From Gordonia araii NBRC 100433 (GTDB lineage Bacteria > Actinomycetota > Actinomycetes > Mycobacteriales > Mycobacteriaceae), in NCBI RefSeq assembly GCF_000241265.1, contig NZ_BAEE01000011.1:1-64000 (forward strand): a stretch of DNA of 64,000 bases. Direction: 5' to 3'. Positions 4,751-64,000 of this stretch are shown one piece after another. Made by a program: the position numbers and the translations under genes. The notes beneath the pieces are model-generated. The model worked only from the letters and a program-made list of their open reading frames with translations. It had not been told where the DNA came from and did no database searches. Numbering within the stretch: position 1 is the stretch's first letter; every line of letters begins with the position of its first letter.

Positions 4751-4773
4751 GAATCCCGATCATAGGGGTGACT

Positions 4774-4872
4774 GGGCACGGTCGGCGAGATCGTGGGCAC
4801 GGTCGGCGGGAATCTGGGCACGGTCGGCGGGAATCTGGGCACGGTCGGCGGGAATCTGGGCACGGTCGGCGG
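4774..4872 (-). repeat. 21-bp tandem repeat array 2 (3' side of the KshB-like gene)
   Basis: Four full 21-base units and one partial unit, each beginning GGGCACGGTCGGCG on the + strand, fill 4774-4872. Three central units are identical (GGGCACGGTCGGCGGGAA plus TCT). The array runs directly into the stop codon (4873-4875) of the minus-strand gene. Read on that gene's sense strand, the unit is the same as in array 1. Confidence 0.92.
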
Positions 4873-26226: not shown

Positions 26227-26318
26227 CGGTGTCCTTGTCGTCGGCGACGGTTTGCGTCGGGAAACGATCGAATCACGATAACGAAGGGATGGTCGGATTG
26301 GTTCCGACGACCTGATCT

Positions 26319-26437
26319 GGGCACGGTCGGCGGGAAAGTGGGCACGGTCGGCGGGAATGTGGGCACGGTCGGCGGGAAAGTGGGCACGGTCGGCGGGAAA
26401 GTGGGCACGGTCGGCGGGAAAGTGGGCACGGTCGGCG
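26319..26437 (-). repeat. 21-bp tandem repeat array 3 (3' side of the phosphatase gene)
   Basis: Five full units (26319-26423) of 21 bases starting GGGCACGGTCGGCGGGAA, four ending AGT and one TGT, plus a partial unit running into the phosphatase stop codon at 26438. Same unit and same orientation relative to the upstream gene as arrays 1 and 2. The remaining 93 bases to the divergent DUF4153-like gene hold its promoter. Confidence 0.93.
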
Positions 26438-45659: not shown

Positions 45660-48600
45660 ATGCCCGAAACGCAGATGCGCATCGCGGCTTTGTGGGGTAG
45701 CTCGGGCGAGGAGCAACCGGTACGCGCGCTCATCGCCGCCGCGGCCGAGACGGCACCGGCCGCGGTCGCCTTCGCTGGCGCAGGCGGTCCGATCGAGTTC
45801 GGCGTGCTCGCGGAGCGCGTCGAGTCCACCGCGCAGATCTTCGAGGCCAGCGGTGTCGACGCCGAAGCCGCCGTGGCCGCGGCCATCACACCGCTGGCCG
45901 TCCCGCCGGGCAGTGCTCAGGCCGAGACCGCCTCGCGGGTGGCGGCCGCGGTGGCCGACATCCGGTCGGCGGCGGCGGGCATCCTGGGAACGACGGAGTG
46001 GACCACCCTGCCCCCCCTGCTGCGATCCGCCGCGCACCGCCATCCGGACCGCGTCGCCGTCGTCGATGAGGCCGGCGCCAGCCGAACCTACGCCGATCTC
46101 GACTGGAGCAGCGATCGGATCGCGGCGGCACTGGCCCGCGCCGGCGTGACCCGCGACGCGGTGGTCGCACTCGCCTTCCCGCCGACCGCTGACATGATCG
46201 TCGCCATCCTCGGCGTCCTGAAATCCGGAGCCGCCTACGTGGCGCTCGACCTGGCGAGCCCGGCCGAGCGGATCGCCTACGTCGTGGCGGATTCGCAGGC
46301 GGTGTCGGTCGTGGCCGACGACACTTCGATCGGTGCCCTGCCCGCGCTGGACGTGCCGGTCGAGAGGTTCGGCGACCTCGTCGCCGCCGACGCCGCCGAC
46401 GCCGCCGAGGTCGTCCCGGTTGGCCCCGGCCCGGAATCCGCGGCCTACGTCATCTACACGTCGGGATCGACCGGACAACCCAAAGGCGTTGTCGTACAAC
46501 ATAATTCCGCTGTCCGATTCCTGCGCTCGATGCAGGAGCTGGTGCCGTTCACCGCCGACGACACGATCGGTCTGTTCGCGTCGTACACGTTCGACGCGTC
46601 GGTGTGGTCGATGTGGTCGGCGCTGGCGCACGGTGGACGGCTCATCGTCGTCGGCACCGACACCCGCGCGAGTCCCGACCTGCTCGCAGGGCTCATCGAA
46701 CGAGAATCGATCACCAGCATCAACCTGACCCCGTCGGTCTTCTACCCGTTCACCGACGCCGTTCGCCCGGGTGGCCGAGTGGCGCTGTCCGACTCGCTGC
46801 GATACCTGCACCTGGCCGGCGAAGCCCTCGACATCCAGGCCGTGCGCGGGTGGTTCGACGACCGTGAGCAGGACGGCCGGGAGGTGCGCCTGTTCAACAT
46901 CTACGGCCCCACCGAGGCGACGGTCCAGGTCACGCTGCGGGCGCTGACACCGGACTACCTCGCCGAGGCGGCCACCGCCGACATCGGGTTCGCGATCCCG
47001 GGCACCGAGGTCACGATCCTCGACGACCGGCTGCGCCCGGTGCCCGACGGGGTGCCCGGCGAGATCTACGTCTGCGGGCCACTGGTCACTCGCGGCTACC
47101 TGAGACGGTTCGGCCTCACCGCGGCGTCGTTCGTCGCCGACCCCCTCGCCGGGTCGACGTCGCCGTCAGGGGTTTCCCTACCGCCCGGCGCCCGGATGTA
47201 CCGCACCGGCGACATGGGGCTGCGACGCGGCGGCGCGATCGAATACCTCGGTCGGCGCGACGGGCAGGTCAAGCTGCGCGGCTACCGGATCGAACTCGGC
47301 GAGGTCGAGGCGGCACTCGCGGCCGCACCGACCGTCGTCGCCGCCGGTGCCGCCGTCCGGGAAGCGGACGGCGGACAGCAGGTGCTGGTCGGCTACGTCG
47401 TCTCCGACGCTGCGCCGCCCGACACCCAGGCCATCCGCGACTCGGTCCGCGCCCATCTACCCGGATACATGGTCCCCGACGTCGTCCTACCGTTGGACGC
47501 GCTGCCACTGTCGACGTCGGGCAAGCTCGATCGCGCCGCGCTGCCCGCCCCCGATTTCGGCGTCGAGGCCGAATACGTCGAACCCGCCACCGATGCCGAG
47601 CGGGACATGGTGCGCATCGTAGAAGAGGTGCTCGGCGTCTCACCGATCAGCGTGACCGCGTCCATTTTCGACCTCGGCGGCAATTCGCTCATCGCCGCGC
47701 AGGTGGCCGCGCTCTGCGGTGAGGAACTCGACCTGGCGGTATCGGTGCGCGATGTCTTCGACGCGCCGACCGTGCGGGAACTGGCGAGCCGGGTGGCGGG
47801 CAGTCACCGGGCGCGGCGGCCAGAACTCGTCGCCCACGAACCCCGCCCGGCGGTCATTCCGCTCTCCCATGCGCAGCGCCGGATCTGGTTCATCTCCGAA
47901 CTCGATCCCGAGACGGCGATTTACAACATGCCGTTGGTGCTCCGTTTCGACGGGACGCTGGACCCGGCAGCGCTGGCCGGCGCCTTCGACGACGTCGTCG
48001 CGCGCCACGAGGTCATGCGCACGCGCTTCGGCGTCGAGGACGGCGTGCCCTACCAAGAGGTGCTGGTCCACGGGAGCTACGCGCCCGATGTCGCGATCGA
48101 TCCGCCGACGCGGCTGGAGCCCGGCCGGGCACCGCTCGACGCCGCCGTCGCGGAGGTCGCCGGCCGGGGCTTCGATCTGCGGGCCGCGCCACCGGTACGA
48201 GCGCGGCTGTTCCAGCGCGGACCGGACGATTTCATTTTCGTGCTGATCGTCCATCACGTGATCGCCGACGGCGCGTCGCTGGCGCCGCTGTCGGGCGACC
48301 TGGTCGCGGCCTACGTCGCCCGCACGGCCGGCGAGGAGCCGCGCTGGCCCGCGCTGCCGGTGCAGTACGCCGACTTCACGTTGTGGAGCCACGAGCTGCT
48401 CGGCGATCCCGATTCGCCTGCGTCGGTGGCCGGCGGTCAACTGGGCTTCTGGGAGAAGGAGCTGGCCGGCGTGCCGGAAGCGATGGCGCTGCCCACCGAC
48501 CGGCCCCGCCCGCCGGTGCAGTCGCAGCGCGCGGCCGCCCACGCCTTCGACGTGGACCCGCGGCTCGTCGAACTGCTCGACGACTTCGCACGGCACCGCC

Positions 48601-51600
48601 AGACGTCGCGGTTCATGGTCCTGCACGCGCTGTGGGCGGCGTTGCTGCACCGGTTGACCGGGGATCGCGACATCGTGATCGGAACCCCGTACACCGGTCG
48701 CGGGGAGCGGGCCCTCGACGACCTCGTCGGCATGTTCATCAACACCGTCGCGTTGCGGACGCCCGTCGATCCCGCGGCGACGTTCGCCGAGCTCGTCTCG
48801 ACGGTACGGGCGCGCGACCTGGCCGCCCTGGACAACTCTGACGTGCCCTTCGACCTCGTGGTCGAGCGCGTCGACCCGGCGCGCAGCACGTCGCACGCGC
48901 CGATCTTCCAGGTGATGCTGCTGTTGCACGAGGCCGACGACGCGAGCTTCGCGCTGCCGGGCGTCGCGGCGGAGATCGTCGAGGTCTACCGCGACCTCAC
49001 CGACAACGACATGGCGATCACTTTCATCGAACGCGGTGCCGGCGAGGAGAGCGGTCTGCACGGCGTCGTCGAATACAACACCGACCTGTTCGACGAGACG
49101 ACCATCCGATCGTTCACCACCATGTTCGACGTCGTGGCGCGCGAACTGCTCACGGCACCGGAAACCCCCGTCGGCGATGCGGTGCTGCTTGCGCCCGCGC
49201 AGCGCGACGCGGTCCTGACCGCGGACCGCGGAGCGCGCATCGACGTTCCCGACTGGACGCTGGCCGACGCCGTCGCCGCACAGATCGCCGCGACGCCCGA
49301 CGCGATCGCACTGAGTCACCGCGACCGCGACGTGACCTACCGGGAGTTCGGCGCACGAGTCGCGACCCTCGCACGCGAATTGATCGGTGCGGGCGTCGGG
49401 CCGGATGTGGCAGTCGCCGTCTGTATCCCGCGATCGGTGGAGATGATGGTCGCCATCCACGCGGTGGTCGCCGCCGGCGGCCAATACGTCCCGATCGACG
49501 TCGACACGCCCGCCGAGCGGTTCGACTACATGGTGGAGACCGCCGGGGCCCGCGTCGTCCTGATCTCCGCGCACGAACAGCGCCCGGCAGCGCTCGGCAC
49601 GGCCGACGACGCCGTGCGGATCCTGCCCGTCGACGCCGAGGCGCCGGTCGACGAGCGGGTCGCGCCGGTGACCGACACCGAGCGGCTCGCGCCGCTGCGG
49701 ACCGATCACGCCGTCTACACGATCTTCACCTCCGGCTCGACCGGGCGGCCCAAGGGCGTGACCCTCCCGCACGACGCGGTCGTCAACCGGCTCCACTGGG
49801 GCTTGCACCAGCTGCCGATCACCGGCGCCGGGAGCGCAGCGAGCGGGCCGAATCACCACGAGTCCGACGATCTGGTGGTCCTCAAGACGCCGTACACCTT
49901 CGACTGTTCGGCGGCGGAGATCTTCGCCCCGCTGATGAACGGCACGCCGCTGCTCGTCGCCGACGCCGATGGGCATCTGGATCCGGTGTACATGGCCGAA
50001 TTGATGGCGCAGCGCGGCGTCACCATGGCCCACTTCGTTCCGTCGATGCTGGCGGTGTTCCTGGAATTGGCGGGCGAATCCCGGCTCGCCCGCCTCGACC
50101 GGCTCCGCATCATCTCCACGACCGGCGAAGCGCTCCCACCGTCGGTGGCCGCGCAGGTCCGCGCCGCGCTGCCGCACGTCACGCTCTACAACCTCTACGG
50201 GCCGACCGAGGCGGCCATCGAGATCACCTACGCCGAGATCGGCGACGACATCGGCCATACCGTCCCGATCGGCGTCCCGGTGTGGAACTCGAGCGCGCAC
50301 GTGCTCGACCCGCGGCTGCACCCGGTGCCCGACGGGGTCGCGGGCGAACTCTACGTCGGCGGTGTACAACTGGCGCGCGGTTACGCGGCCCGTCCCGACC
50401 TGACCGCCGACCGCTTCGTCGCCGACCCGTTCGCGGGTGAGTCCGCACCCCCGGGCGCGCGCCTGTATCGCACGGGCGACCTGGTCCGGCGCAACCGATC
50501 CGGCGATCTGGAATACCTGGGCCGCACCGACTTCCAGGTGAAGCTGCGCGGCCAGCGCGTCGAGCTCGGGGAGATCGAGGCGGCGCTGACGCAGGCGCCC
50601 GGCGTCGTTCACGCCGCCGCGACCGTGGCCAAGGGCCCCGACGGCGGCGAACACCTCGTCGCCTACCTCGCCGGTGCGCCCGAAGAAGGGGGAGCGGCGG
50701 CGATCGACCTGGCGGCGGTCAAGGCGGCGATCGCCGGGCCGCTACCGGAGTTCATGCGTCCCACCGTGTGGATGCTGCTCGATGAGGCGCCGCGCAATTC
50801 CGCCGGCAAGCTCGACCGCAACGCGCTGCCGCCGCCGGAGTTCACGGCGGGGGAGTACGTCGCTCCGGCGACCCCCGCGGAGAAGGAGATCGCCGAGATC
50901 GTCGCCGAGGTGATCGGTACCGAGCGCGTCGGCGTCACGGATTCCTTCTTCGACGTCGGCGGCAACTCGCTCTCGGCGACCCGCGTGATGGCACGCGTCG
51001 GCGAGGCGTTCGGCGTCGACCTGGGTGTCCGGGCGCTGTTCGACGCGCCGACGGTGCGCGAGCTGGCTCGTGTCGTCGACGAGGAGACCGGTGGGCAGTC
51101 ATCCACGAGCGCGTCCGTCCCGCTCGTCGCCCAGGAACGGCCCGAGCGCATTCCGCTCTCCTTCGCCCAGCAGCGGATGTGGTTCATCAACCAGTTCGAC
51201 ACCTCGTCGGCGGCCTACAACATTCCAGTGGTCCTGGATGTGACCGAATCCGGGACCGGCGCCGGGAGCGGTAGCGAGCGGGCCGAATCCGGAACCGGTT
51301 CGCTCGACCTCGCCGCTTTGCGGCTGGCGGCACACGATGTCCTCGCCAGGCACGAGGTGCTGCGCACGACCTACCCGGCCGACGAGAACGGCCAGCCCTA
51401 TCAGCTCATCGCCGATTCCGCCGATGCGGCCGAGCGTCTCGACTTCGCCGTCGTGGAGGCCGGCGATCCGGCCGGTGTCGTGGCCGAGGAGGTCGGCCGG
51501 GGATTCGACGTGTCGGTGCAGCTGCCCATCCGGATCCGGTTGATCCGGCAGGAGCCGGACCGTTCGACGCTCGTCGTCGTCCTGCATCACATCGCGGCCG

Positions 51601-54600
51601 ACGGCGAGTCGGGTCCGGTGCTGGCGGCCGATTTGGTGACCGCTTACCGCGCCCGTGCGGTCGGTGACGCGCCCGGCTGGGCGCCGTTGCCGATCCAGTA
51701 CGCCGACTACGCGCTGTGGCAGACCGCCGTGCTCGGATCCGATGACGACGACGATTCGCTGGGTGCCAGGCAAACGGGGTTCTGGACCGCCGAGCTGGCC
51801 GGTGTGCCCGAAGTCCTCGACCTGCCCGCCGACCGGCCGCGACCGGAGTCGTCGTCGGGGGCCAGCGGGTCGGTCGACTTCGGCGTCGGCGCCGACGTGC
51901 GCGACCGTCTCGTCGAACTGGGCCGCGAGCACGGGGCTTCGCTCTTCATGGTCGCGCACGCCGCGGTGGCGACCCTGCTGGCGCGCCTGTCGGCGACGAC
52001 GGACATCACGATCGCCACGCCGGTCGCCGGTCGAGGACTCGGCGCCCTCGACCGACTGGTCGGCATGTTCGTCAATACGCTGGTGCTGCGCAGCGAGTTC
52101 GACCCCGCATCGACAGCCGGAGACCTGCTCGTCCAGATCCGCGACCGCGATCTCGCGGCCTTCGACCACGCCGACCTGCCCTTCGAGAAGGTCGTGGAGG
52201 CCATCGACCCGGTGCGCTCGGATTCCTTCGGGCCGCTCGCCCAGGTCCTGCTGGTGTTCGTCGCCGCCGAACAGCGGCCGATCACCGTCGACGGCCTGAC
52301 ACTGACCCCGGTCGATCCCGGTGCCGGGGCCGCCAAGTTCGACCTCACCTTCGGCGTCGCCGACCGGCAGGGAGCCGGTTTGGGCGGGTCCCTCGTCTAT
52401 GCCGCCGATCTGTTCGACGAGTCGACGGCGCGGTGGTTCGCCCGTGGCCTCGAGGCGGTGCTCACCGCGCTCGCCCGCACCGGGGGCACCCTGCGGCTCG
52501 GTGACGTGGATCTGCTCGACGACGCCCAGCACCGCGCGGTGGCCGCCGCCTCGGTGGGCCCCGCCGTGCCGCTGCTGCCCGAGACGATTCCGGATGCCGT
52601 CGATGCCGCGCTGCGCGGCAACCCGGACGCGATCGGACTGGTCACCGACGACGCCGAAGTCGCCAACGGCCGCTTCGCGGGGCTGGTCGCCCACTACGCG
52701 CGCATCCTCATCGCCGAGCACGGCGTCGGCCCCGACGTGGCGGTCGCGGTCTGCATGCCGCGCGGGCTCGGCATGGTCCTCGCCATCCACGCGGTGCTGG
52801 CGGCGGGCGGCCAGTACGTCCCGGTGGACACGTCCCTGCCGCCCGACCGCGCCGACTACATGTTCGACGACGCCCAGGTGCGGGTCGTGCTGCTGGCGCC
52901 GGGCGACGAACCGGCGCCGATGGCGGGTCGCACCATCGCGACGGTTGCCGTTGACCCGGATGCCGCGGTGACACCGGAGTCGTCGGCACCACTGCGGGCC
53001 GTCGAGCGGCTGGCGCCGCTGCGCGGGGACAACGCCGCGTACACGATCTTCACCTCGGGGTCGACGGGCCGGCCCAAAGGCGTGACCGTCTCGCAGCGGT
53101 CGGTGCTCAATCGCCTGCGCTGGGGATTGGCGACGTTCCCACTCGGTGCGGACGACACGGTCATCCTCAAGACCCCCTACACCTTCGACGTCTCGGTGCC
53201 GGAGCTGTTCGCGCCGCTACTCGCCGGGGCGCGCATGTTCATCGCGCGCGACGGCGGCCACGCCGATCCCGACTACCTGATCGACGTGCTGGAGACCAAG
53301 GGCATCACCTCGGTGCACTTCGTGCCGTCGATGCTCGCGGTGTTCCTCGACGTCGTCGACGACTCTCGCCTGCGGGCGCTCACCGGCATTCGCTACGTGT
53401 TCGCCTCCGGTGAAGCACTGCCGGCGTCGCTGGCCAAGCGGACCCGCGAGATCTGGCCGTCGTCGGGTTTGCACGACCTGTTCGGTCCGACCGAGGCGGC
53501 GGTCGAGGTCAGCCACGCCGATCTCGATGTCGTCGGGCACACGGTGCCCATCGGCTATCCGATCTGGAACACGGCCACCTACGTCCTGGACTCGCGGCTG
53601 GCCCCCGTCGGCACCGGCGTGCCCGGCGAGCTGTATCTCGGCGGTGTCCAGCTGGCCCGCGGCTACGCCGCGCGGCCCGACCAGACCGCCGACCGATTCG
53701 TCGCCGACCCCTTCGCCGGGTCGACGACGCCGGGTCGAGCGGAGCGAGGGGGTCATTGGTCGGGGGTGTCCATTCCGTCCGGTGCCCGGATGTACCGCAC
53801 CGGCGACCTCGTCGCCCGCAACGCCGACGGCGCGCTGGAATACCTGGGACGCACCGACTTCCAGGTGAAGCTGCGCGGCCAGCGCATCGAACTGGGCGAG
53901 GTGGAATCAGTCCTCGCCGCGGTGCCCGGTGTCGTCCACGCCGCGGCAACGGTGGCGAGCGCGCCAACCGGTGCCGAACACCTCGTCGCCTACCTTTCCG
54001 GACACTCCGACATCGACCTGGACGAGGCGAAATCGAGCGTCGCGCAAGCACTTCCGGAGTACATGGTGCCCACCGTGTGGCAGGTGCTCGACGAGGTGAC
54101 GCTCAATTCGGCCGGAAAGCTCGACCGCCGCGCGCTGCCCGAGCCCGACTTCGCGTCGGCCGTCGCGGGCGCCGACCCGGTCGCACCGCGATCGGCGGCC
54201 GAGCGGCGCATCGCCGATATCGTGGCGGGTGTCCTCGGCGTCGACCGGGTCGGTGTCACCGACTCCTTCTTCGCGCTCGGCGGCGACTCCATCATGTCGA
54301 TCCAGCTCTCGTCGCTGTTGCGGGCAGAGGGCTTCGAACTGGGACCGCGCGACATCTTCGAGCAGCGGACCGTGCGCGGCCTGGCCGCTCTCGCGTCGAC
54401 GGCCGAGGCGACGGTCCTCGACGAATTGCCCGGCGGCGGAATCGGTGAGGTCGATCTGACACCCACCATCTCGTGGATGCTGGAGAACTCCCCGCGCCCC
54501 GGGGCCTTCCGCGACTACTCGCAGGCCTTGGTGTTGGCGCTGCCCGCGGAGGTCGACGATGACGGCGTCGTGACCGCGCTCGACGCGGTCATCGCCCGGC

Positions 54601-57600
54601 ACCCCATGCTTTCGGCGCGATTGGCCGACGGCGGGGACGGGCGCGCGACGATGACGGCGGGCAACGACGTCGGCTCGGTCGCCGACCGGCTCACCGTCGC
54701 CTCCTCGCCGGCCGTCGTGGGGTCCGCCGAATTCGACGACGCGCTCCGAGCGGGCCACCGCGAGGCGCTGGCCAGGCTGGACCCGGCGTCGGGTGCGATG
54801 GTGGCCGCGGCCGTTGTCCGCGCCGACAGCGGTGTCGGGCGCCTGATTCTCGCCATTCACCACGCCGTGGTCGATGCCGTGTCATGGCGCGGGATCGTCG
54901 GCGATCTCGTCGCCGCCTCGGCGCGCCTCGGCGCGGGGGAGCCCGCCGACCTGCCGCCCGCCTCGGGAACGTCGATGCGGCGCTGGGCGCGCGCCCTCGC
55001 CGAACTGGGTGAGAAACGGCGCAACGAGATACCGCTGTGGCGCGAGCACCTGCCCATCTCGCCCGCGCTGGCATTGCCGGAACCGGGGCTGGTGGCCGAG
55101 ACGTCGAACATCGCCGTCACGGTGCCGTCCGAGGTGACCGAGACGGTGCTGACCCGGGTGGCCGACGCCTTCCGCGCCGGTGTGGACGACGTGCTGCTGG
55201 CGGCGTTGCTGATCGCTGTCGCCCGCCTCGACGGCGGCAGCGCGGAGTCGGCCGCGGTACTCGTCGAGGGCCACGGCCGCGTCGAGTCGGTCGCACCGGG
55301 CGCCGACCTGTCGAGCACCGTCGGCTGGTTCACCAGCGTCTCCCCGGTGGCGGTCGGCACCGCCGACCTGCTCCGGGACGATCTCGTGCGCGCCGTCAAG
55401 GCCGTCAAGGAGGCGGTCGCCGCGCGGCCCGACGACGGGATCGGCTTCGGCCCGTTGCGCTGGGGGCCGGGCGCCGACCCGGATCTGGCGCACCGGCCGC
55501 TGCCGCCGATCGTCTTCAACTACCTCGGCGCGGCCACCGCGGGTGCCGCCGCGGCCGGCGGCGTCGACGAGATCGCCTTCGCACCTGTCGCGGACGCGCC
55601 GGCGCTGCCCGGAACGATCACCGGTGAGATGATCGCGCCGGCGCTCGCGGCGAACGTCAACACCGTGAGCGACCCGACGGGCCGACGATTCGCCATCGAC
55701 CTCGCGGCGCCGGAACGCGTCCTCGACGCCGCGGCCCTCACGGCCCTCGGTGAATCGATGAGCCAGATCCTCGCCGACCTCGTCGACGAGGTATCCGAAC
55801 GGGATCCCGGGCCTAGTCCGTCGGACCTGCCCGGACTGGACCTGGACCAGGACGAGATCGACGCCATCCGCGCTGCTCACCCGGGCGCCGAGATCTGGCC
55901 GCTGTCACCGCTGCAGCACGGACTGCTCTTCCAATCCGAACTGGCCGCCGAGTCCGCGGGCGGAACCGACCCGTACCTGATGCAGGCGGTCGTCGAATTG
56001 CGCGGCGACCTCGACGGCCAGCGCCTGCGCGCCGCCGCCCAACAGTTGCTGGACCGCACGGCCGTGCTGCGATCGGCCTACCGGCGCACGGCGAACGGGC
56101 AGGGAGTCGCCGTCGTCGCGCCGCACGTCGAAGCCCCGTGGCGCACCGTCGACCTCCGCGACATCGATGACGAGCGGGCGCGCTCGGCCGCCGACGAGGT
56201 GGCTCGCGACGAAGGGTGCGCCCGGTTCGACCTCGCGCATTCGCCGCTGATCCGGTTCGTCCACGTACTGCTTCCGGGCGAGGCAAGCAAGCTCGTCATC
56301 ACCAATCACCATCTGCTCGCCGACGGATGGTCGAGTCCGCTCGTCCTGGGCGAGCTGTTCGCGTCCTACGCCGACCCGGCCCGCGCGGACACCGGTGAAC
56401 GGACCGACTACCGCGACTTCCTCGAATGGGTGGCCGGCCGCGACGAGGAGGCGTCGCGGCAGGCGTGGCGCGAGTTCCTCGCCGACGTGTCCGGGCCGAC
56501 TCTCGTCGCACCGCGGACCCCGCGGCCCGACGAGGTCAGCGTGGACCACCGCATCACGTTGGGGCCCGAGACGACCGCGAAGCTGACCCGGTTCGGGCGA
56601 GAGCATGAGATCACCACCGCGACGCTGCTGCAGTTCGCATGGGCCGTGGTGCTGCACCGGTTCACCGGGGCCGACACGGTGATTTTCGGTGAGACCGTGT
56701 CCGGCCGACCGCCGGAGCTGGCGGGCGCCGAGTCGATGATCGGCCTGCTCATCAACACGGTGCCGGTCGCGGTCACCGTCGACGGCGACGCGACTGTCCT
56801 CGACGCTCTGGGCGATCTCGGGCGCCGCAAGGCGGGTGTGCTCGAACACCAGCACCTGTCGCTCACCGCGATCACCGCGGCGGCCGCCGGTCCGAAGGCA
56901 AGCTCGCCGCTATTCGACACGCTGACCGTCTACGAGTCCTACCCCGTCGACGCGCGAGGGCTGTCGGCCGCGGGCGAGGCGCTCGGCGTGCACATCGCCG
57001 ACGCGACGGCGAGCGACTCGACGCACTACCCGCTGACCCTGGCGGCGGCGCCGGACACCGGCGACGGGGTGGCCGATATCGCGCTGACGCTCAAATACCT
57101 GCCGAGCCTGTTCTCCCGCGACGAAGCAGCGTCCTTCGCGGCCGCGGTCACGTCGGTGCTGGCGGCGGTAGCCGAAGGCGACGGTCGCCGGGTGGCGGAC
57201 CTGCCGCTGGTCGCACCCGATGCGCCGGCCGGGCCGCCACTGCGGCCCGGCGTCGAGCCGGTACTCCTGCGCGACCTGTTCGCAGTGGCGGCGAGCAAGC
57301 ACCGCGGCCGCGTCGCGGTGATCGCCGGATCGTCGTCGATGACCTATCGCAAGCTCGACGAGGCCTCCAACCGTCTCGCGCGCGTGTTGCTGGAAGACGG
57401 CGTGGGTCCGGAAGTGCTCGTCGCGCTCGCGATCCCCCGGTCGGTCGAATTGCTCATCGCGATCTGGGCCGTCGCCAAAACCGGCGGCGGCTACGTGCCG
57501 ATCGATCCGGATTACCCGCCGGCGCGGGTGACCGCGATGCTGGAGGACTGCGGAGCCGAGACCGGTCTCACGACATCGGCCGCCGACGGTCTGCCCGGCC

Positions 57601-60600
57601 TCCCGGGCGGCGACTGGCACCGCATCGACGGCGGGGATCTCGTCACCCGCTACCGGGCTGCCGACTCGGGGCCGCTGGCCAAAGCCGACCTGCCGCCGAC
57701 GAGCGTCGACAACACGGCCTACGTCATCTTCACCTCCGGCTCCACCGGCCGCCCCAAGGGCGTCGCGGTCACCCACCGCGGGCTCGCCAACTTCGCCACC
57801 CAGGAGGCGCGACGGTCCGGCGTGGGCGAGGGCGCCCGGGTGCTCGGCTTCGCGTCGCCGAGCTTCGACGCCTCGGTGCTCGAATACCTGCTCGCGACGA
57901 TCTCCGGCGGCGCCCTTGTCTATCGGTCCGCCGACGCCGTCGGGGGCGAGGCGCTGGAGCGGGTCGTCGCGGGCAAGGCCGTGACGCACGGATTCCTCAC
58001 CCCGTCGGTGGTCGCCTCCCTCGACCCGGACGTGTGGGAATCGCTGCACGCCCTGTTCGTCGGGGGCGAGGCGGTTCCCGAGTCTCTCGTCGAGCAGTGG
58101 GCGTCGGCCGGCCGACGCGTGCAGAACCTTTACGGGCCCACCGAGACGACGATCGGCATCACCATCAGCGATCCCCTGCAGCCGCGAGAACCGGTCGTCC
58201 TGGGCGAACCGCTGGACGGCGTCGGGCTCATGGTGCTCGACGACCGGCTGCGTCCGGTTCCGCACGGCTTCCCCGGGGAGCTGTACGTCTACGGCAACGC
58301 CCTCTCGCGCGGCTACCTCGAACGGCCGGGGCTGACCGCCGACCGCTTCGTCGCCAACCCCTACACCCCCGGCAGCCGCATGTACCGCACCGGCGACCTC
58401 GTCACCTGGTGCGGCGATCCGCGAGACCGGCTGGTCCTGCGCTACCACGGCCGCAACGACGACCAGATCAAACTGCGCGGGCTGCGCCTCGAACTGGGCG
58501 AGATCGAGGCGGCCCTCGCGCGGGCCGACGGTGTCACCGCGGCCGTGGTCGTCGGCGTGCGTGCGGACGGGGCGATCGCCGAGCCGGGGGACAACGTCGT
58601 CTCGGCACTCGCCGCCTACATCGTCGCCGGGCCCGAGGTCGACATCGACAGCGTTCGAGAGCAGATCGCCGCCGACCTGCCGGCGCACGCGGTGCCGTCG
58701 ACGATCACCCCCATCGGCACCCTGCCGCTCACCCCGGTCGGCAAACTCGACCGCCGCGCGCTGCCCGCCCCGACCATCGCGGCCGGCGGGGCCGGCCGTG
58801 TCGAGCCGGCGGGGCCGGTGGAGAGCGCGATCGCGGGAATCTTCGCCGAACTGCTCGGCACCGACGACGTCGGAGCGACGGACTCCTTCTTCCTCCTCGG
58901 CGGAAACTCCCTGTCGGCGGCCCAGCTCGTCGCCCGGGTCGGCCACGCCTTCGACACCCGGATCGGCATCGCCGACCTCTTCGACGCCCCGACCGTTCGC
59001 GGCCTCGCGGCCGTCGTCGGCGAGTCGACGGCGCCCGCACTGCCGCCCATCACTCCCGGCTCCTCCGCCGAGACCCCGATCCCGCTCACCTACGCGCAGC
59101 AACGGATCTGGTTCATCAACCGCTACGACCCCGATTCGGGCGCCTACAACATCCCGGTGCTGCTCCGGATGCGCGGCGCCGTGGACATCGACCGGCTGCG
59201 CGCAGCGCTGCTGCGGGTGATGACGCGCCAGACGGTCCTGCGGACCGTCTTTCCGATCGACTCCGATGGTCGGCCCCGGCAGCAGCCCGTCTCGGCCGAC
59301 GTGGCGGACCAGCGGCTGGACTGGGCGGTCGTCGACACCGCCGACGCGGCGCGCGCCGCATTCTCCGACGGATTCGACCTCACCCGCGACCTGCCGATCC
59401 GCGTCCGGATCGTACGCGAAGGGCCGGACTCCGCGGTGGTCGCGATCGTCGTACACCACATCGCCGCCGACGGCCAGTCGATGCCGGTCCTCGCACGCGA
59501 TCTGCTGGCGGCCTACGGGGCGCGGGGCGGTGGCCCGGGCGAGGAGCCCGAAGTCACCTACGGCGACTACGCGCGGTGGCAGCGCGAGAACCTCGGTGCG
59601 GTCGACGAACCGGAATCGGTGCTGGGCCGCCAATGGGATTATTGGCGCCAACGCCTGGCCGGCTTGCCCGAGGTCACGGATCTGCCGATGGACCGGCCGC
59701 GCGGCGCGGAGTTCGACCCCGCGGGCGGCCGGCTGACGGTGACCATCGACCCGGACGCCGTGAATTCCCTGCGCCGGCTCGCGGAGGACACCGGCACGAC
59801 CGTCTTCATGGTGTTGCACGCGGCGCTGACCGTCCTCGTCGCGCGGCTCACCGGCTCGGGTGACGTCGTCGTCGGCACGGCGGTCGCCGGGCGCGGCGAT
59901 CGTGCCCTCGACGCGCTCGTCGGCATGTTCGTCAACACGGTGATCCTGCGAACCGCCGTCGACCCGTCGCACACCGCCGCCGAGGTCTTGGCGTCGGTGA
60001 AGGCGACCGACGTCGAAGCGATGGCCCACGCCGACCTGCCGTTCGAGGAACTCGTCGAAGCGCTGGCCCCGGCGCGTTCACGGTCGCACTCGCCGCTGTT
60101 CCAGATCGGCCTCAACCACGTGCTCGTCGCGGCGGACACCGCGACGACGTTGGAGGTCGACGGCGTCGCGGTCGAGCAGATCGACCCGGGGCCGCTGCCC
60201 GCGAAAGTCGATCTCACGGTCGACGTCCGCGAATCCGTGGACGCCGGCGAGCCCATCAGGGCCGAGTTCACCTATGCGACGGCGCTTTTCGACGAGGAGA
60301 CGGTCGCCGGGTTCGCCGGGGCGTGGCAGGCGATTCTGTCCGCGATGACCGCCGACCCGTCGATGCCGGTCGGTGACGTCGAGTTGTTGCCCGAGGGACT
60401 CGGCGGCGAACTGGTGCCCGCGCACGGGCCGGCGCCCAGCGCCCCGGCGACGGTCCGGGAACTCCTCGCGTCCGTCGGGCCCGACCCGTCCCGCGCTGCC
60501 GTCGTCGAGGGCGATGTCGCGGTGAGCTATGCGGACTTCGAGGCCCGGACCAATCGCCTCGCCCGGTTGCTGGTCGAGCGCGGGATCGGCGCGGGCGATG

Positions 60601-63600
60601 TGGTCGCCGTGGCGATGCGCCGATCGATCGACTCGGTCGCCGCCACGTGGGCCGTGCTCAAGGCGGGGGCCGCCTACCTGCCGGTCGACCCGCGCCTGCC
60701 GTCGGCGCGAGTGACGGGAATGCTCGACGACGCGCAGGTGCGCTTCGGCCTCACGCGCACGGTCGAGTCCGGCTTCTCGGCCCCGGGGGAGTGGGTCGCC
60801 GTCGACTCCGCCGAGACCGTCGAGGCGCTGTCGCGACAGGACGCGACCCCGGTCTCCGATGCCGAACTCGTCCGCGTGCCGACGGTCGACGACGTCGCCT
60901 ACGTCGTCTTCACCTCGGGCTCCACCGGGCGTCCCAAAGGCGTGGCCGTGACCCATCGCGGCATCGCCAACCTCGTCGGCTCGCTGCGCGGGCTGACCGG
61001 CACGGAGGTCGCCGAGCCGCGCGTGCTGCACGTCGCCTCGCCGAGTTTCGACGCGGCCTTCTTCGAGATGGCATGGGCCTACTTCGGCGGAGCCACGCTG
61101 GTGGTGTCGCCCGCCGACGTGTTCGGCGGCCGCGAACTCGCCGGCGTCATCGCCGGCGGTGCGGTCACTCACGCCGTGATCACGCCGTCGGTGCTGCGCA
61201 CGGTGGAGGCGAGCGGTGTGCCCGGCCTCCGGGTCATCGCGACGGCGGGCGAAGAGCTGCTTCCCGAACTCGTGCGGTCCTGGACCGGCCGCCGGTTCAT
61301 GAACCTGTACGGACCGACCGAAACGACCGTGTGGGCCACCGTGTCCGAGGCCGCCCCCGACGAACCCGTCGTCATCGGGCGCCCGGTCGCCGGCATCGGC
61401 GCGATGGTCCTCGACGCGCGGCTGCGCCCGGTCCTGCCCGGGGTCGTCGGCGAGCTGTACCTGGCCGGCGACCAACTGGCGGCCGGCTACCTCGGACGGC
61501 CGGGACTGACGGCGGGCACCTTCGTCGCGTGCCCCTTCGGGCCGCCCGGATCGCGAATGTATGCCACGGGAGACCTGGTTCGATGGCGCAGTGCGGGCGG
61601 GCAATGGCAGCTCGAGTTCGCCGGTCGCGACGACTTCCAGGTGAAGGTCAACGGCCAGCGCGTCGAACTCGGCGAGATCGACGCGGTGATCGGCTCCTAC
61701 GCCGGAGTCGCGTCGACGGTCACCGTCGGCAACGACGACCAGAACGGCGTCACCCGGCTGGTGACCTACGTCGTCGGCACATCGCTCGACGTTGAGACTG
61801 CACCCGCGCTCATCGTCGATCATGCCCGCGAGCATCTGCCCACCTACATGGTCCCGTCGGCTGTCGTAGTCCTCGACGCCCTGCCGCTCACGGCGGTCGG
61901 CAAGCTGGATCGCACAGCACTGCCGACCCCGGAATTCGGCGCGCAGACGCCGTTCGAGGAGCCGGGCACCCCGACCGAACACGCGGTCGCCGAGGTGTTC
62001 GCCGCTATCACCGGCGCCGACCGGCGCGTCGGGGCCCGCGATTCGTTCTTCGACCTGGGCGGCACGTCGTTGGCGGCCACCCGGGCGGCCGCGCAGCTCG
62101 CGGACCGGCTCGGCGTCGACGTCACCGTGCGCGACCTCTTCGACGAGCCGGAGGTCGCGGGGCTGGCCCGTCTGCTGGGCGCCCGGGACCGGCGCACGAG
62201 CCCACCGCTCGGTCCCCGCGACCGGCCGACCCCGCTTCCGCTCTCGGCGACCCAGCGTCGCATGTGGTTCCTCAACCAGTTCGACACCGACTCGGCCGCT
62301 TACAACATTCCCATCCCGGTGCGGCTGCGCGGGGAACTCGACCCGGCCGTGCTGCGCGAGGCGGTGGGCGATGTGATGGCCCGCCACGAGGTTTTGCGCA
62401 CGGTGTACCCGTCGGGGACGGATGGGCCGCGCCAGGAGATCCTCGCCGCCGACACGGCGCGCGCCCGGCTGGACGCCGCGGCCGTCGGATCGTCGGCGGA
62501 GCTGCTCGCGGCGGCCGGGCAGGGATTCGACGTCGGCGAACAGCTACCGCTTCGCGTGCGATGGCACCAGCATGCGGAGGACGGTGAACCGATCCTCGAC
62601 CTGCTCGTCGTGGTGCACCACATCGCGTTCGACGGGCAGTCGGCGCCGGTGTTCGTCGGCGATCTCGTCGCCGCGTACCAGCGCCGCGCCGGCGCCGGGA
62701 GCGAAGCGAGCGGGCAGGCCCCGCTTCCGGTGCAGTACGCGGACTATGTGCTGTGGCAGCTCGAAGTGCTGGGCGACGTCACTGATCCCGATTCCGAGAT
62801 GGCCCGCCAGTTCGCCCACTGGCGCGAACGGCTGGCCGATCTGCCCGCCGTCACCAACCTGCCCATGGATCGTCCGCGTCCGGCCGTCGCCGACCAGCGA
62901 GGCGCCCGCCTGCGCATACCCATCGACGAGTCGACGGTCGCCGGGCTCGCCGAGCTGGCCGCGCGGCACGGAGTCACGACATTCATGACCCATCACGCGC
63001 TGCTGTCGGTGCTCGTCGCACGGATGGCGGCCACCGACGACGTGGTCATCGGCACCCCGATCGACGGGCGCACCGAGACGGCGCTGCACGGACTGGTCGG
63101 CATGTTCGTCAACACGCTCGTGTTGCGTACGCGCGTGGACGCCGGGATGCGTCTCGACGAGTTGCTCGCGCACGTGCGCGGAGTCGACGTCGAGGCCTTC
63201 GACAACGCCGCCGTCCACTTCGAGCAGTTGGTCGAGGCGCTCGCGCCCGAGCGGTCCACCGCGCACGCGCCGCTGTTCCAGATCGCCCTCGCCGTCACCG
63301 ATGCCTCCGCGCAGCCGTCGGGTTCGGTGGAGCTCGAGCGAGCCGGCGTGCGGGTCGAGCCGCTGCCGGCCGATGTGGACGAGGAGAAGGTCGACCTGAC
63401 GCTCAGCGTCGTCACCGGCGGCGAACGGGACGAGAACTACCTCGAGTTCTCCTACGCCACCGCCCTGTTCGACGAGTCGACCGTCCGGCGCTTCGCGCAA
63501 GTGTGGCAGCGCATCGCCACGGCCGCGATCGCCGATCCGGGGGTACCCGTCGGCGACATCGACATCGTGGGCTCGACCACTGAGGGGGCCACGTCCGCTC

Positions 63601-64000
63601 ATTCGGGTGGTCGAGTGGACGCGACGAAGGAGCGGCCGTATCGAGACCCGGTGGGCCGAGGGCCTGGGCCGGGTGGTCTCGATACACCGACTCGCTCCGC
63701 TCGTCGGCACTCGACCACCGAAGGGGCCACCACCGCCCATTTGGGTGACTCGACCACCGAAGGGGCGACCACCGCCCATTTGGGTGACTCGACCACCGAA
63801 GGGGCGACCACTGCCCATTTGGGTGACTCGACCACCGAAGGGGCGACCGCCGCCCATTTGGGTGGTCGAGTGGACGCGACGGAGGAGCGGCCGTATCGAG
63901 ACCCGGTAGGTCGAGTGCCTGGCGAGCCTGCGAGCCAGGTGTATCGAGACCTGGTAGGTCGAGTGCCTGGCGAGCCTGCGAGCCAGGTGTATCGAGACCC
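45660..64000 (+). CDS. Non-ribosomal peptide synthetase 2 (A-T-C-A-T-C-A-T-E-C-A-T-C-A-T-C...), 3' end outside window
   Basis: An open frame from ATG 45660 to the window edge (6113 codons). The first 115 residues resemble a worn A-domain start, then A3 117-630, T3 (LGGNSLIAAQ, 673), C4 733-1183, A4 1197-1720, T4 (VGGNSLSATR), C5 1828-2290, A5 2307-2827, T5 (LGGDSIMSIQ), E 2930-3393 (HHAVVDAVSW, EGHGRVE), C6 3408-3840 (NHHLLADGW, D-residue acceptor type), A6 3870-4373, T6 (LGGNSLSAAQ), C7 4473-4910, A7 4927-5423, T7 (LGGTSLAATR), C8 5523-5967, then repeats. Pocket codes: A4 D-C-A-H-S-T-L-I-E, A5 D-V-P-H-F-S-L-V-E (serine-like). The fifth residue of the product should be D. No thioesterase is in view. 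Confidence 0.93.
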   Translation, partial: MPETQMRIAALWGSSGEEQPVRALIAAAAETAPAAVAFAGAGGPIEFGVLAERVESTAQIFEASGVDAEAAVAAAITPLAVPPGSAQAETASRVAAAVADIRSAAAGILGTTEWTTLPPLLRSAAHRHPDRVAVVDEAGASRTYADLDWSSDRIAAALARAGVTRDAVVALAFPPTADMIVAILGVLKSGAAYVALDLASPAERIAYVVADSQAVSVVADDTSIGALPALDVPVERFGDLVAADAADAAEVVPVGPGPESAAYVIYTSGSTGQPKGVVVQHNSAVRFLRSMQELVPFTADDTIGLFASYTFDASVWSMWSALAHGGRLIVVGTDTRASPDLLAGLIERESITSINLTPSVFYPFTDAVRPGGRVALSDSLRYLHLAGEALDIQAVRGWFDDREQDGREVRLFNIYGPTEATVQVTLRALTPDYLAEAATADIGFAIPGTEVTILDDRLRPVPDGVPGEIYVCGPLVTRGYLRRFGLTAASFVADPLAGSTSPSGVSLPPGARMYRTGDMGLRRGGAIEYLGRRDGQVKLRGYRIELGEVEAALAAAPTVVAAGAAVREADGGQQVLVGYVVSDAAPPDTQAIRDSVRAHLPGYMVPDVVLPLDALPLSTSGKLDRAALPAPDFGVEAEYVEPATDAERDMVRIVEEVLGVSPISVTASIFDLGGNSLIAAQVAALCGEELDLAVSVRDVFDAPTVRELASRVAGSHRARRPELVAHEPRPAVIPLSHAQRRIWFISELDPETAIYNMPLVLRFDGTLDPAALAGAFDDVVARHEVMRTRFGVEDGVPYQEVLVHGSYAPDVAIDPPTRLEPGRAPLDAAVAEVAGRGFDLRAAPPVRARLFQRGPDDFIFVLIVHHVIADGASLAPLSGDLVAAYVARTAGEEPRWPALPVQYADFTLWSHELLGDPDSPASVAGGQLGFWEKELAGVPEAMALPTDRPRPPVQSQRAAAHAFDVDPRLVELLDDFARHRQTSRFMVLHALWAALLHRLTGDRDIVIGTPYTGRGERALDDLVGMFINTVALRTPVDPAATFAELVSTVRARDLAALDNSDVPFDLVVERVDPARSTSHAPIFQVMLLLHEADDASFALPGVAAEIVEVYRDLTDNDMAITFIERGAGEESGLHGVVEYNTDLFDETTIRSFTTMFDVVARELLTAPETPVGDAVLLAPAQRDAVLTADRGARIDVPDWTLADAVAAQIAATPDAIALSHRDRDVTYREFGARVATLARELIGAGVGPDVAVAVCIPRSVEMMVAIHAVVAAGGQYVPIDVDTPAERFDYMVETAGARVVLISAHEQRPAALGTADDAVRILPVDAEAPVDERVAPVTDTERLAPLRTDHAVYTIFTSGSTGRPKGVTLPHDAVVNRLHWGLHQLPITGAGSAASGPNHHESDDLVVLKTPYTFDCSAAEIFAPLMNGTPLLVADADGHLDPVYMAELMAQRGVTMAHFVPSMLAVFLELAGESRLARLDRLRIISTTGEALPPSVAAQVRAALPHVTLYNLYGPTEAAIEITYAEIGDDIGHTVPIGVPVWNSSAHVLDPRLHPVPDGVAGELYVGGVQLARGYAARPDLTADRFVADPFAGESAPPGARLYRTGDLVRRNRSGDLEYLGRTDFQVKLRGQRVELGEIEAALTQAPGVVHAAATVAKGPDGGEHLVAYLAGAPEEGGAAAIDLAAVKAAIAGPLPEFMRPTVWMLLDEAPRNSAGKLDRNALPPPEFTAGEYVAPATPAEKEIAEIVAEVIGTERVGVTDSFFDVGGNSLSATRVMARVGEAFGVDLGVRALFDAPTVRELARVVDEETGGQSSTSASVPLVAQERPERIPLSFAQQRMWFINQFDTSSAAYNIPVVLDVTESGTGAGSGSERAESGTGSLDLAALRLAAHDVLARHEVLRTTYPADENGQPYQLIADSADAAERLDFAVVEAGDPAGVVAEEVGRGFDVSVQLPIRIRLIRQEPDRSTLVVVLHHIAADGESGPVLAADLVTAYRARAVGDAPGWAPLPIQYADYALWQTAVLGSDDDDDSLGARQTGFWTAELAGVPEVLDLPADRPRPESSSGASGSVDFGVGADVRDRLVELGREHGASLFMVAHAAVATLLARLSATTDITIATPVAGRGLGALDRLVGMFVNTLVLRSEFDPASTAGDLLVQIRDRDLAAFDHADLPFEKVVEAIDPVRSDSFGPLAQVLLVFVAAEQRPITVDGLTLTPVDPGAGAAKFDLTFGVADRQGAGLGGSLVYAADLFDESTARWFARGLEAVLTALARTGGTLRLGDVDLLDDAQHRAVAAASVGPAVPLLPETIPDAVDAALRGNPDAIGLVTDDAEVANGRFAGLVAHYARILIAEHGVGPDVAVAVCMPRGLGMVLAIHAVLAAGGQYVPVDTSLPPDRADYMFDDAQVRVVLLAPGDEPAPMAGRTIATVAVDPDAAVTPESSAPLRAVERLAPLRGDNAAYTIFTSGSTGRPKGVTVSQRSVLNRLRWGLATFPLGADDTVILKTPYTFDVSVPELFAPLLAGARMFIARDGGHADPDYLIDVLETKGITSVHFVPSMLAVFLDVVDDSRLRALTGIRYVFASGEALPASLAKRTREIWPSSGLHDLFGPTEAAVEVSHADLDVVGHTVPIGYPIWNTATYVLDSRLAPVGTGVPGELYLGGVQLARGYAARPDQTADRFVADPFAGSTTPGRAERGGHWSGVSIPSGARMYRTGDLVARNADGALEYLGRTDFQVKLRGQRIELGEVESVLAAVPGVVHAAATVASAPTGAEHLVAYLSGHSDIDLDEAKSSVAQALPEYMVPTVWQVLDEVTLNSAGKLDRRALPEPDFASAVAGADPVAPRSAAERRIADIVAGVLGVDRVGVTDSFFALGGDSIMSIQLSSLLRAEGFELGPRDIFEQRTVRGLAALASTAEATVLDELPGGGIGEVDLTPTISWMLENSPRPGAFRDYSQALVLALPAEVDDDGVVTALDAVIARHPMLSARLADGGDGRATMTAGNDVGSVADRLTVASSPAVVGSAEFDDALRAGHREALARLDPASGAMVAAAVVRADSGVGRLILAIHHAVVDAVSWRGIVGDLVAASARLGAGEPADLPPASGTSMRRWARALAELGEKRRNEIPLWREHLPISPALALPEPGLVAETSNIAVTVPSEVTETVLTRVADAFRAGVDDVLLAALLIAVARLDGGSAESAAVLVEGHGRVESVAPGADLSSTVGWFTSVSPVAVGTADLLRDDLVRAVKAVKEAVAARPDDGIGFGPLRWGPGADPDLAHRPLPPIVFNYLGAATAGAAAAGGVDEIAFAPVADAPALPGTITGEMIAPALAANVNTVSDPTGRRFAIDLAAPERVLDAAALTALGESMSQILADLVDEVSERDPGPSPSDLPGLDLDQDEIDAIRAAHPGAEIWPLSPLQHGLLFQSELAAESAGGTDPYLMQAVVELRGDLDGQRLRAAAQQLLDRTAVLRSAYRRTANGQGVAVVAPHVEAPWRTVDLRDIDDERARSAADEVARDEGCARFDLAHSPLIRFVHVLLPGEASKLVITNHHLLADGWSSPLVLGELFASYADPARADTGERTDYRDFLEWVAGRDEEASRQAWREFLADVSGPTLVAPRTPRPDEVSVDHRITLGPETTAKLTRFGREHEITTATLLQFAWAVVLHRFTGADTVIFGETVSGRPPELAGAESMIGLLINTVPVAVTVDGDATVLDALGDLGRRKAGVLEHQHLSLTAITAAAAGPKASSPLFDTLTVYESYPVDARGLSAAGEALGVHIADATASDSTHYPLTLAAAPDTGDGVADIALTLKYLPSLFSRDEAASFAAAVTSVLAAVAEGDGRRVADLPLVAPDAPAGPPLRPGVEPVLLRDLFAVAASKHRGRVAVIAGSSSMTYRKLDEASNRLARVLLEDGVGPEVLVALAIPRSVELLIAIWAVAKTGGGYVPIDPDYPPARVTAMLEDCGAETGLTTSAADGLPGLPGGDWHRIDGGDLVTRYRAADSGPLAKADLPPTSVDNTAYVIFTSGSTGRPKGVAVTHRGLANFATQEARRSGVGEGARVLGFASPSFDASVLEYLLATISGGALVYRSADAVGGEALERVVAGKAVTHGFLTPSVVASLDPDVWESLHALFVGGEAVPESLVEQWASAGRRVQNLYGPTETTIGITISDPLQPREPVVLGEPLDGVGLMVLDDRLRPVPHGFPGELYVYGNALSRGYLERPGLTADRFVANPYTPGSRMYRTGDLVTWCGDPRDRLVLRYHGRNDDQIKLRGLRLELGEIEAALARADGVTAAVVVGVRADGAIAEPGDNVVSALAAYIVAGPEVDIDSVREQIAADLPAHAVPSTITPIGTLPLTPVGKLDRRALPAPTIAAGGAGRVEPAGPVESAIAGIFAELLGTDDVGATDSFFLLGGNSLSAAQLVARVGHAFDTRIGIADLFDAPTVRGLAAVVGESTAPALPPITPGSSAETPIPLTYAQQRIWFINRYDPDSGAYNIPVLLRMRGAVDIDRLRAALLRVMTRQTVLRTVFPIDSDGRPRQQPVSADVADQRLDWAVVDTADAARAAFSDGFDLTRDLPIRVRIVREGPDSAVVAIVVHHIAADGQSMPVLARDLLAAYGARGGGPGEEPEVTYGDYARWQRENLGAVDEPESVLGRQWDYWRQRLAGLPEVTDLPMDRPRGAEFDPAGGRLTVTIDPDAVNSLRRLAEDTGTTVFMVLHAALTVLVARLTGSGDVVVGTAVAGRGDRALDALVGMFVNTVILRTAVDPSHTAAEVLASVKATDVEAMAHADLPFEELVEALAPARSRSHSPLFQIGLNHVLVAADTATTLEVDGVAVEQIDPGPLPAKVDLTVDVRESVDAGEPIRAEFTYATALFDEETVAGFAGAWQAILSAMTADPSMPVGDVELLPEGLGGELVPAHGPAPSAPATVRELLASVGPDPSRAAVVEGDVAVSYADFEARTNRLARLLVERGIGAGDVVAVAMRRSIDSVAATWAVLKAGAAYLPVDPRLPSARVTGMLDDAQVRFGLTRTVESGFSAPGEWVAVDSAETVEALSRQDATPVSDAELVRVPTVDDVAYVVFTSGSTGRPKGVAVTHRGIANLVGSLRGLTGTEVAEPRVLHVASPSFDAAFFEMAWAYFGGATLVVSPADVFGGRELAGVIAGGAVTHAVITPSVLRTVEASGVPGLRVIATAGEELLPELVRSWTGRRFMNLYGPTETTVWATVSEAAPDEPVVIGRPVAGIGAMVLDARLRPVLPGVVGELYLAGDQLAAGYLGRPGLTAGTFVACPFGPPGSRMYATGDLVRWRSAGGQWQLEFAGRDDFQVKVNGQRVELGEIDAVIGSYAGVASTVTVGNDDQNGVTRLVTYVVGTSLDVETAPALIVDHAREHLPTYMVPSAVVVLDALPLTAVGKLDRTALPTPEFGAQTPFEEPGTPTEHAVAEVFAAITGADRRVGARDSFFDLGGTSLAATRAAAQLADRLGVDVTVRDLFDEPEVAGLARLLGARDRRTSPPLGPRDRPTPLPLSATQRRMWFLNQFDTDSAAYNIPIPVRLRGELDPAVLREAVGDVMARHEVLRTVYPSGTDGPRQEILAADTARARLDAAAVGSSAELLAAAGQGFDVGEQLPLRVRWHQHAEDGEPILDLLVVVHHIAFDGQSAPVFVGDLVAAYQRRAGAGSEASGQAPLPVQYADYVLWQLEVLGDVTDPDSEMARQFAHWRERLADLPAVTNLPMDRPRPAVADQRGARLRIPIDESTVAGLAELAARHGVTTFMTHHALLSVLVARMAATDDVVIGTPIDGRTETALHGLVGMFVNTLVLRTRVDAGMRLDELLAHVRGVDVEAFDNAAVHFEQLVEALAPERSTAHAPLFQIALAVTDASAQPSGSVELERAGVRVEPLPADVDEEKVDLTLSVVTGGERDENYLEFSYATALFDESTVRRFAQVWQRIATAAIADPGVPVGDIDIVGSTTEGATSAHSGGRVDATKERPYRDPVGRGPGPGGLDTPTRSARRHSTTEGATTAHLGDSTTEGATTAHLGDSTTEGATTAHLGDSTTEGATAAHLGGRVDATEERPYRDPVGRVPGEPASQVYRDLVGRVPGEPASQVYRD
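49824..49847 (+). repeat. 24-bp element inside NRPS 2 (copy 1, A4)
   Basis: GGCGCCGGGAGCG followed by CAGCGAGCGGG, encoding GAGSAASG, inserted where A domains normally read straight into the segment before the LKTPYTFD motif. Related copies lie at 51258 and 62691. Confidence 0.75.
51258..51282 (+). repeat. 25-bp element inside NRPS 2 (copy 2, C5)
   Basis: GGCGCCGGGAGCG then GTAGCGAGCGGG, encoding GAGSGSER, within an early loop of the C5 domain. It is flanked by near-identical 16-base stretches, CCGAATCCGGGACCGG (51244-51259) and CCGAATCCGGAACCGG (51283-51298), like a target duplication or slippage product. Confidence 0.72.
53716..53770 (+). repeat. REP-like insertion in the A5 domain
   Basis: Between FADPFAG-type sequence and GARMYRTGDL the A5 domain carries about 20 extra residues (STTPGRAERGGHWSG...). 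The DNA includes GGTCGAGCGGAGCGAG (53733-53748), the arm of the palindromic repeats seen at the window end. A6 and A7 lack this insertion. Confidence 0.6.
62691..62714 (+). repeat. 24-bp element inside NRPS 2 (copy 3, C8)
   Basis: GGCGCCGGGAGCG then AAGCGAGCGGG, encoding GAGSEASG, in the C8 domain just before APLPVQYADY, at a loop that is short in the other C domains of these genes. Confidence 0.75.
63570..63863 (+). repeat. 39-bp in-frame tandem repeats after C8 of NRPS 2
   Basis: Units of 39 bases encode 13 residues, (D/H)STTEGATTAHLG. There is one diverged unit at 63570-63608 and four close units at 63708-63746, 63747-63785, 63786-63824 and 63825-63863. Between the first and the others lies a 99-base segment with a REP-like palindrome. 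All keep the NRPS frame. Confidence 0.9.
63672..63719. repeat. REP-like palindromic element
   Basis: A 48-base imperfect palindrome beginning GGTGGTCTCGATACACCGAC and ending GTCGGCACTCGACCACC, with the loop TCGCTCCGCTC. Such GGTCTCGA...TCGACC palindromes are dispersed intergenic repeats in Gordonia-like genomes; here it is inside a coding frame. Confidence 0.7.
63864..64000 (+). repeat. 44-bp direct repeat and 48-bp tandem repeat at the window end
   Basis: 63864-63907 repeats 63609-63652 almost exactly (GGTCGAGTGGACGCGAC start). From 63906 a 48-base unit encoding (L/P)VGRVPGEPASQVYRD occurs twice up to the window edge and contains the dyad CCTGGC/GCCAGG. The NRPS frame stays open throughout. 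Confidence 0.88.

What the first reader, a model, noticed from the sequence alone, without database searches (positions are those of the whole stretch)
63570..64000. Palindromic repeats have invaded the NRPS frame after C8 and expanded in frame
Where a C-to-A linker is expected, the second NRPS gene has at least 430 bases of 39-, 44- and 48-base repeats and a REP-like palindrome. All preserve the reading frame and encode a hydrophilic repeat peptide (DSTTEGATTAHLG; VGRVPGEPASQVYRD). Elements of this type are normally intergenic. Coding tolerance would make it comparable to the Rickettsia palindromic elements found inside genes. It may form a flexible spacer between megasynthase modules, or be a recombination hot spot for module exchange.
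Basis: seen in the sequence. Interest (0 to 1): 0.75.

Follow-up and report, generated by a model that had tools for sequence, protein, structure and literature searches.

The report
Palindromic repeats lengthening an NRPS linker
A small repeated palindrome normally found between genes has settled inside a giant peptide-making enzyme gene and grown there without breaking the reading frame, and the same palindrome family has done this at the joints of at least eight other proteins in this group of bacteria.

Summary
The window belongs to a 97-kb contig. Past base 64000 the frame stays open to C88:66458 (6,932 aa) and an intact A domain resumes at once, so the gene is not truncated. The C-A linker is 144 aa (63573-64004) instead of the usual 20-34 aa. 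It holds five copies of a REP-like palindrome (GGTCTCGATAC-hairpin-CTCGACCACC), four 39-bp units and 2.3 48-bp units. The palindrome has 140 exact copies in this genome. About 85% of those I could place are extragenic, but 19 of 125 lie in CDSs, in 11 genes. Orthologs were found for eight of the other genes. The closest relative G043, a one-contig genome, has different in-frame copies at the same joints in seven of them; more distant relatives mostly have none. Tandem periods are all multiples of 3 in CDSs but not outside. This works like Rickettsia palindromic elements and is a variant of known intragenic REPs. It lacks the GTAG/CGTC tag, and no Y1 (RAYT-type) transposase was found in any of 59 genus genomes. 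Most likely it is tolerated selfish DNA in disordered linkers. Module exchange at this point is not supported.

The parts
45660..64000 (+). Second NRPS gene of the cluster; ORF continues to C88:66458 (6,932 aa)
62235..63578 (+). Condensation domain preceding the insert (PF00668), HHxxxDG motif present; Ka/Ks vs G043 0.28
63573..64000 (+). REP-derived in-frame insert replacing the C-A linker; 144 codons, ends at C88:64004, 4 bases past the window
63606..63648 (-). Palindrome copy 1, read as GGRVDATKERPYRDP
63675..63719 (+). Palindrome copy 2 (opposite orientation), read as GLDTPTRSARRHSTT
63709..63864 (+). Four tandem 39-bp (13-codon) units, (DSTTEGATTAHLG)n; each contains the palindrome's end CTCGACCACC. 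No exact copy of the unit in any other locus held
63861..63903 (-). Palindrome copy 3, read as GGRVDATEERPYRDP
63893..64000 (+). 2.3 tandem 48-bp (16-codon) units made of palindrome copies 4 and 5 (to C88:64003)
63909..63951 (-). Palindrome copy 4, read as GRVPGEPASQVYRD
63957..63999 (-). Palindrome copy 5, same peptide

Best explanation
The segment is a cluster of five copies of a REP-like miniature palindrome that is common in this genus. It entered the disordered C-A linker of one NRPS module in this lineage and then grew by slippage or unequal recombination in 13- and 16-codon units. Shown: in-frame read-through to an intact A domain; dispersed multicopy hairpin with conserved ends and compensated cores; absence from the same linker of relatives; equivalent in-frame copies in other genes of this genome and of relatives. 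Inferred: the element is a non-autonomous 'selfish' repeat of unknown mobiliser. It lands anywhere, most coding insertions are purged, and the survivors are in interdomain linkers or loops, in phases without stops, with expansions divisible by three. The encoded 144-aa hydrophilic peptide is an unstructured, mostly neutral tether between the C and A domains.
For: Open frame to C88:66458, A domain directly downstream, PCP after it. Same linker in G043 and G039 has 24 and 21 aa with no palindrome copy; 20-34 aa in most relatives. 140 exact-end copies genome-wide, 0 for the reversed-pattern control; found in 23 of 59 genus genomes. 95 distinct cores among 125 copies, stem length 5.2 vs 2.6 shuffled and 3.4 for swapped halves. 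19 of 125 copies lie in CDSs of 11 genes. Of eight such genes with orthologs, G043 holds its own different copies at the same joint in seven and G039 in four. In five the joint lies between Pfam domains (ABC-ABC, biotin carboxylase-biotinyl, AT-ACP, GH92N-GH92, OB-MaoC). Tandem periods divisible by 3: 10 of 10 in CDSs, 18 of 50 outside, Fisher p = 1.7e-4. Ka/Ks 0.23-0.29 on both sides. AlphaFold2: residues 446-593 pLDDT about 25, much of the flanking domains 60-92. KD hydropathy -0.87 for the insert vs +0.08 for the whole protein.
Against: No clean empty site: the old linker sequence is gone, so no target-site duplication can be shown. No expression or proteomic data. Low pLDDT is partly expected because no aligned relative covers the insert, and the whole model is of modest confidence (mean 57.6). 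Ka/Ks includes time before the insertion. Copy number comes from a 98-contig draft. Gene calls for the CDS/extragenic split are from a simple codon model. The period split was collapsed by hand from overlapping finder rows.
Confidence: 0.85

Rival explanations
1. The repeat segment is selected as a functional long flexible spacer that changes the geometry of the C-A platform of this module.
For: Hydrophilic and predicted unstructured; frame kept through several expansions; another species (G032) independently expanded the same linker in frame with (DIDIIR)n.
Against: Same kind of insert occurs in unrelated proteins at any tolerant joint; closest relatives keep ~22 aa in the orthologous linker; no sign of conservation of the peptide.
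Confidence: 0.1
2. The repeats are a recombination hot spot for exchange of NRPS modules.
For: Tandem direct repeats in a linker; the array has clearly changed copy number.
Against: C domain upstream (74% nt) and A domain downstream (78% nt) both match one contiguous module of G043, and likewise of G039; the 39-bp unit has no exact copy elsewhere in the loci held.
Confidence: 0.04
3. Assembly artefact or decaying pseudogene.
For: Draft of 98 contigs; tandem repeats are hard for short reads.
Against: Insert plus flanks stay in one frame through several unit changes; intact motifs downstream; low Ka/Ks on both sides; the same phenomenon in G043, a one-contig genome, 9 of 30 copies in CDSs.
Confidence: 0.05
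4. The stable hairpins (-13 to -19 kcal/mol as RNA) act in the mRNA as translational pauses between domain folding steps.
For: Five hairpins sit exactly between C and A domains; host genes often have the insert between domains.
Against: Orthologs without hairpins exist; no positional conservation beyond the tolerant joint; extragenic copies dominate.
Confidence: 0.03

Closest known systems
Rickettsia palindromic elements (RPEs; Ogata et al. 2000, 2002, as reviewed in PMC10969869)
   Same: Palindromic repeats found both between and inside genes, in frame, in unrelated proteins, at positions compatible with folding
   Different: Here 43-50 bp units with 95 distinct hairpin cores among 125 copies, often tandem; high-GC mycolic-type actinobacterium; same joints occupied by different copies and frames in sister species. 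Sequence relation to RPEs not tested.
Intragenic GTAG/CGTC REPs (Di Nocera et al. 2013, PMC3733652)
   Same: Short dispersed hairpins, mostly extragenic, some inside genes; clusters encode up to 43-82 aa; location in flexible linkers or loops already proposed there
   Different: No GTAG/CGTC tag, phylum not among those listed there, no tyrosine transposase found in any genus genome, and a 144-aa cluster in a megasynthase
REPINs / RAYT system (Bertels and Rainey 2011, PMC3116915)
   Same: Neighbouring hairpins, sometimes in inverted orientation, genome-wide
   Different: No PF01797 transposase found in any of 59 genus genomes

Membership tests
REP (repetitive extragenic palindrome) | Short palindrome with common consensus | tested here: met
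   Conserved ends, compensated hairpin core, 43-50 bp
REP (repetitive extragenic palindrome) | Many dispersed copies | tested here: met
   140 exact-end copies, control 0
REP (repetitive extragenic palindrome) | Mostly extragenic | tested here: met
   106 of 125 outside CDSs
REP, tagged superfamilies | GTAG or CGTC unpaired tag at one end | tested here: not met
   Flanks are heterogeneous on one side and mostly ACC[C/G]A on the other
REP/REPIN with RAYT | Cognate Y1 tyrosine transposase in the genome | tested here: not met
   PF01797 absent from own genome and from 59 of 59 genus genomes; controls positive
Rickettsia palindromic element | In-frame insertion into otherwise intact protein genes | tested here: met
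   NRPS plus eight genes with orthologs
Rickettsia palindromic element | Sequence membership of an RPE family | not tested
   No RPE sequences compared; the elements belong to a different phylum
MITE | Target-site duplication and a parental transposon | tested here: inconclusive
   Linkers without the element have diverged too far to read a TSD; no parental element sought beyond PF01797

The most novel reading that the evidence does not exclude
A palindrome family mobilised by something other than a Y1 transposase repeatedly colonises interdomain joints of core proteins in a clade of actinobacteria, and continuing turnover gives each species its own set of long disordered linkers, so that linker evolution in these bacteria is driven by a miniature mobile element.
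Probability: 0.35. Interest if true: 0.8.

Novelty: new variant of a known kind. Interest (0 to 1): 0.62.

Why it matters
Protein-coding palindromes were first described as a Rickettsia peculiarity and later seen for tagged REPs in some other phyla. Here a tag-less palindrome, in a genus where no RAYT-type transposase was found, sits in frame in several multidomain proteins (Pks13-like, AccA3-like and AftD-like among them) and in an NRPS. Sister species hold different copies at the same joints. That makes a natural experiment on which protein joints tolerate insertion, and raises the question of what moves the element. It also offers natural examples of long C-A spacers for NRPS engineering.

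Tried and rejected
No Rfam or Pfam match for the insert. Exact 39-bp unit elsewhere: none in the 139 loci held then. A loose palindrome pattern (2 plus 3 mismatches) gave chance hits inside genes, so counts rest on the exact-end pattern. Module exchange was rejected because both flanks match the same ortholog. The HNH/DUF222 and SHOCT host genes were not checked against orthologs and count as tentative. A short GAGCGAAGCGAGCG motif in the NRPS loops turned out to be low copy.

Full report
What is there. The window is G000:C88:1-64000 of a 97,306-base contig in a 3.9-Mb draft. The repeats begin right after the condensation domain (…VGDIDIVG) and end at C88:64004. They comprise palindrome copies 1 to 5, a 39-bp array of four and a 48-bp array of 2.3. 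Each 39-bp unit contains CTCGACCACC, one end of the palindrome, so that array looks like slippage of a palindrome end plus its spacer. In the NRPS frame all 144 codons are open; the other two forward frames have 2 and 4 stops.

Past the window the frame continues without a break. SETGTLVDILASRDLDPSHPALICGD opens an AMP-binding domain, followed by a PP-binding domain, and the ORF ends at C88:66458, 6,932 aa in all.

Comparison with relatives. In the genus, the closest matches to both the C and the A domain are one contiguous module of G043 (74% and 78% nt) and one of G039. Their linkers are 24 and 21 aa without any palindrome copy. Most other relatives have 20-34 aa; G032 has 58 aa with its own (DIDIIR)n expansion. 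So the array most simply arose in the window's lineage, replacing an already hypervariable linker. Ka/Ks is 0.23-0.29 on both sides, which fits a functional enzyme but includes time before the insertion.

The element. GGTCTCGATAC-N-CTCGACC has 140 exact copies in this genome and none for the reversed control pattern. It also occurs in 22 of 58 relatives, some with only one or two matches, with 140 copies in G043 and 165 in G011. Among 125 copies placed in held sequence there are 95 different cores. Stems are longer than in shuffled cores (5.2 vs 2.6) or in cores made of halves of different copies (3.4), so the two sides vary together. No PF01797 (Y1/RAYT-type) transposase was found in any genus genome, although the control genomes respond.

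It is not only the NRPS. With a codon-model gene caller, 106 of 125 copies are outside CDSs and 19 inside, in 11 genes. Pfam names the hosts: AftD, a two-ATPase oligopeptide ABC protein, penicillin amidase, biotin carboxylase/BCCP (AccA3-like), AT-ACP-TE (Pks13-like), GH92, OB/MaoC, plus a membrane protein without a Pfam match and two small proteins. For eight of these orthologs were found. In G043 seven of the eight carry other copies, with other cores and often in another frame, at the same joint; G039 does so in four; the third-tier relatives mostly have none. In five hosts the joint is between Pfam domains. In the penicillin amidase it lies just before the SNAWG maturation site, that is, in the region expected to be the spacer peptide (established knowledge of the family). 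G043 is a single contig and has 9 of 30 sampled copies inside CDSs.

Signs of selection on frame. Tandem arrays associated with the element have periods divisible by three in 10 of 10 cases inside CDSs and 18 of 50 outside (Fisher p = 1.7e-4; overlapping finder rows collapsed by hand, and some arrays belong to a neighbouring 21-22-bp repeat family). The 21 coding copies with full ends use only three of the six possible frames. They are not independent of one another, so this is a hint only.

How it most likely works. Copies arise by an unknown route and are mostly removed when they hit genes, given that genes fill most of such a genome. Copies that land in a disordered joint in a stop-free phase survive. 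There they can expand by whole codons and become long hydrophilic linkers. AlphaFold2 leaves residues 446-593 of the C-linker-A construct unstructured (pLDDT about 25) between the two domains (shallow alignment, mean 57.6, and no relative covers the insert). Whether the NRPS gains anything from the spacer is not known.

Relation to the literature. RPEs (PMC10969869) and intragenic GTAG/CGTC REPs (PMC3733652) are the same kind of phenomenon. The latter already reports clusters of 43-82 aa and suggests flexible linkers. The phyla listed in that paper do not include Actinobacteria, and a full-text search for intragenic palindromes in actinobacteria found nothing; absence from an open-access library is weak evidence. 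The genus is not named by the tools.

Noticed in passing
window 3360-3477, 4302-4364, 4772-4872, 26318-26437: A second dispersed family of 21-22-bp tandem arrays (CGCCGACTGGGCAC.. / TGGGCACGGTCGGCGG..) that also accompanies palindrome clusters elsewhere and is itself coding in some genes (e.g. ADRAQDP repeats in the penicillin amidase).
   Followed up: partly
window 49830-49847, 62697-62714; C88:64389-64406, 73109-73126: Short GGGAGCGAAGCGAGCGGG motif (GAGSEASG peptide) in loops of several NRPS domains; 11 near-exact copies in the genome.
   Followed up: partly
L033 (G032:C1:3951600-3954150), C-A linker: Independent in-frame tandem expansion DIDIIRDIDIIRDIDIIRDID in the orthologous NRPS linker of another species, without the palindrome.
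   Followed up: no
L120:240-2732 (own C95) and G043:C1:190297-190341: Palindrome copies inserted just before the SNAWG autocatalytic site of a penicillin amidase, in the expected spacer peptide, in both species with different sequence.
   Followed up: partly
L211-L213 (G043:C1:288585-288832): An 806-aa predicted protein of G043 whose middle part is built of palindrome-derived peptides in several frames.
   Followed up: no
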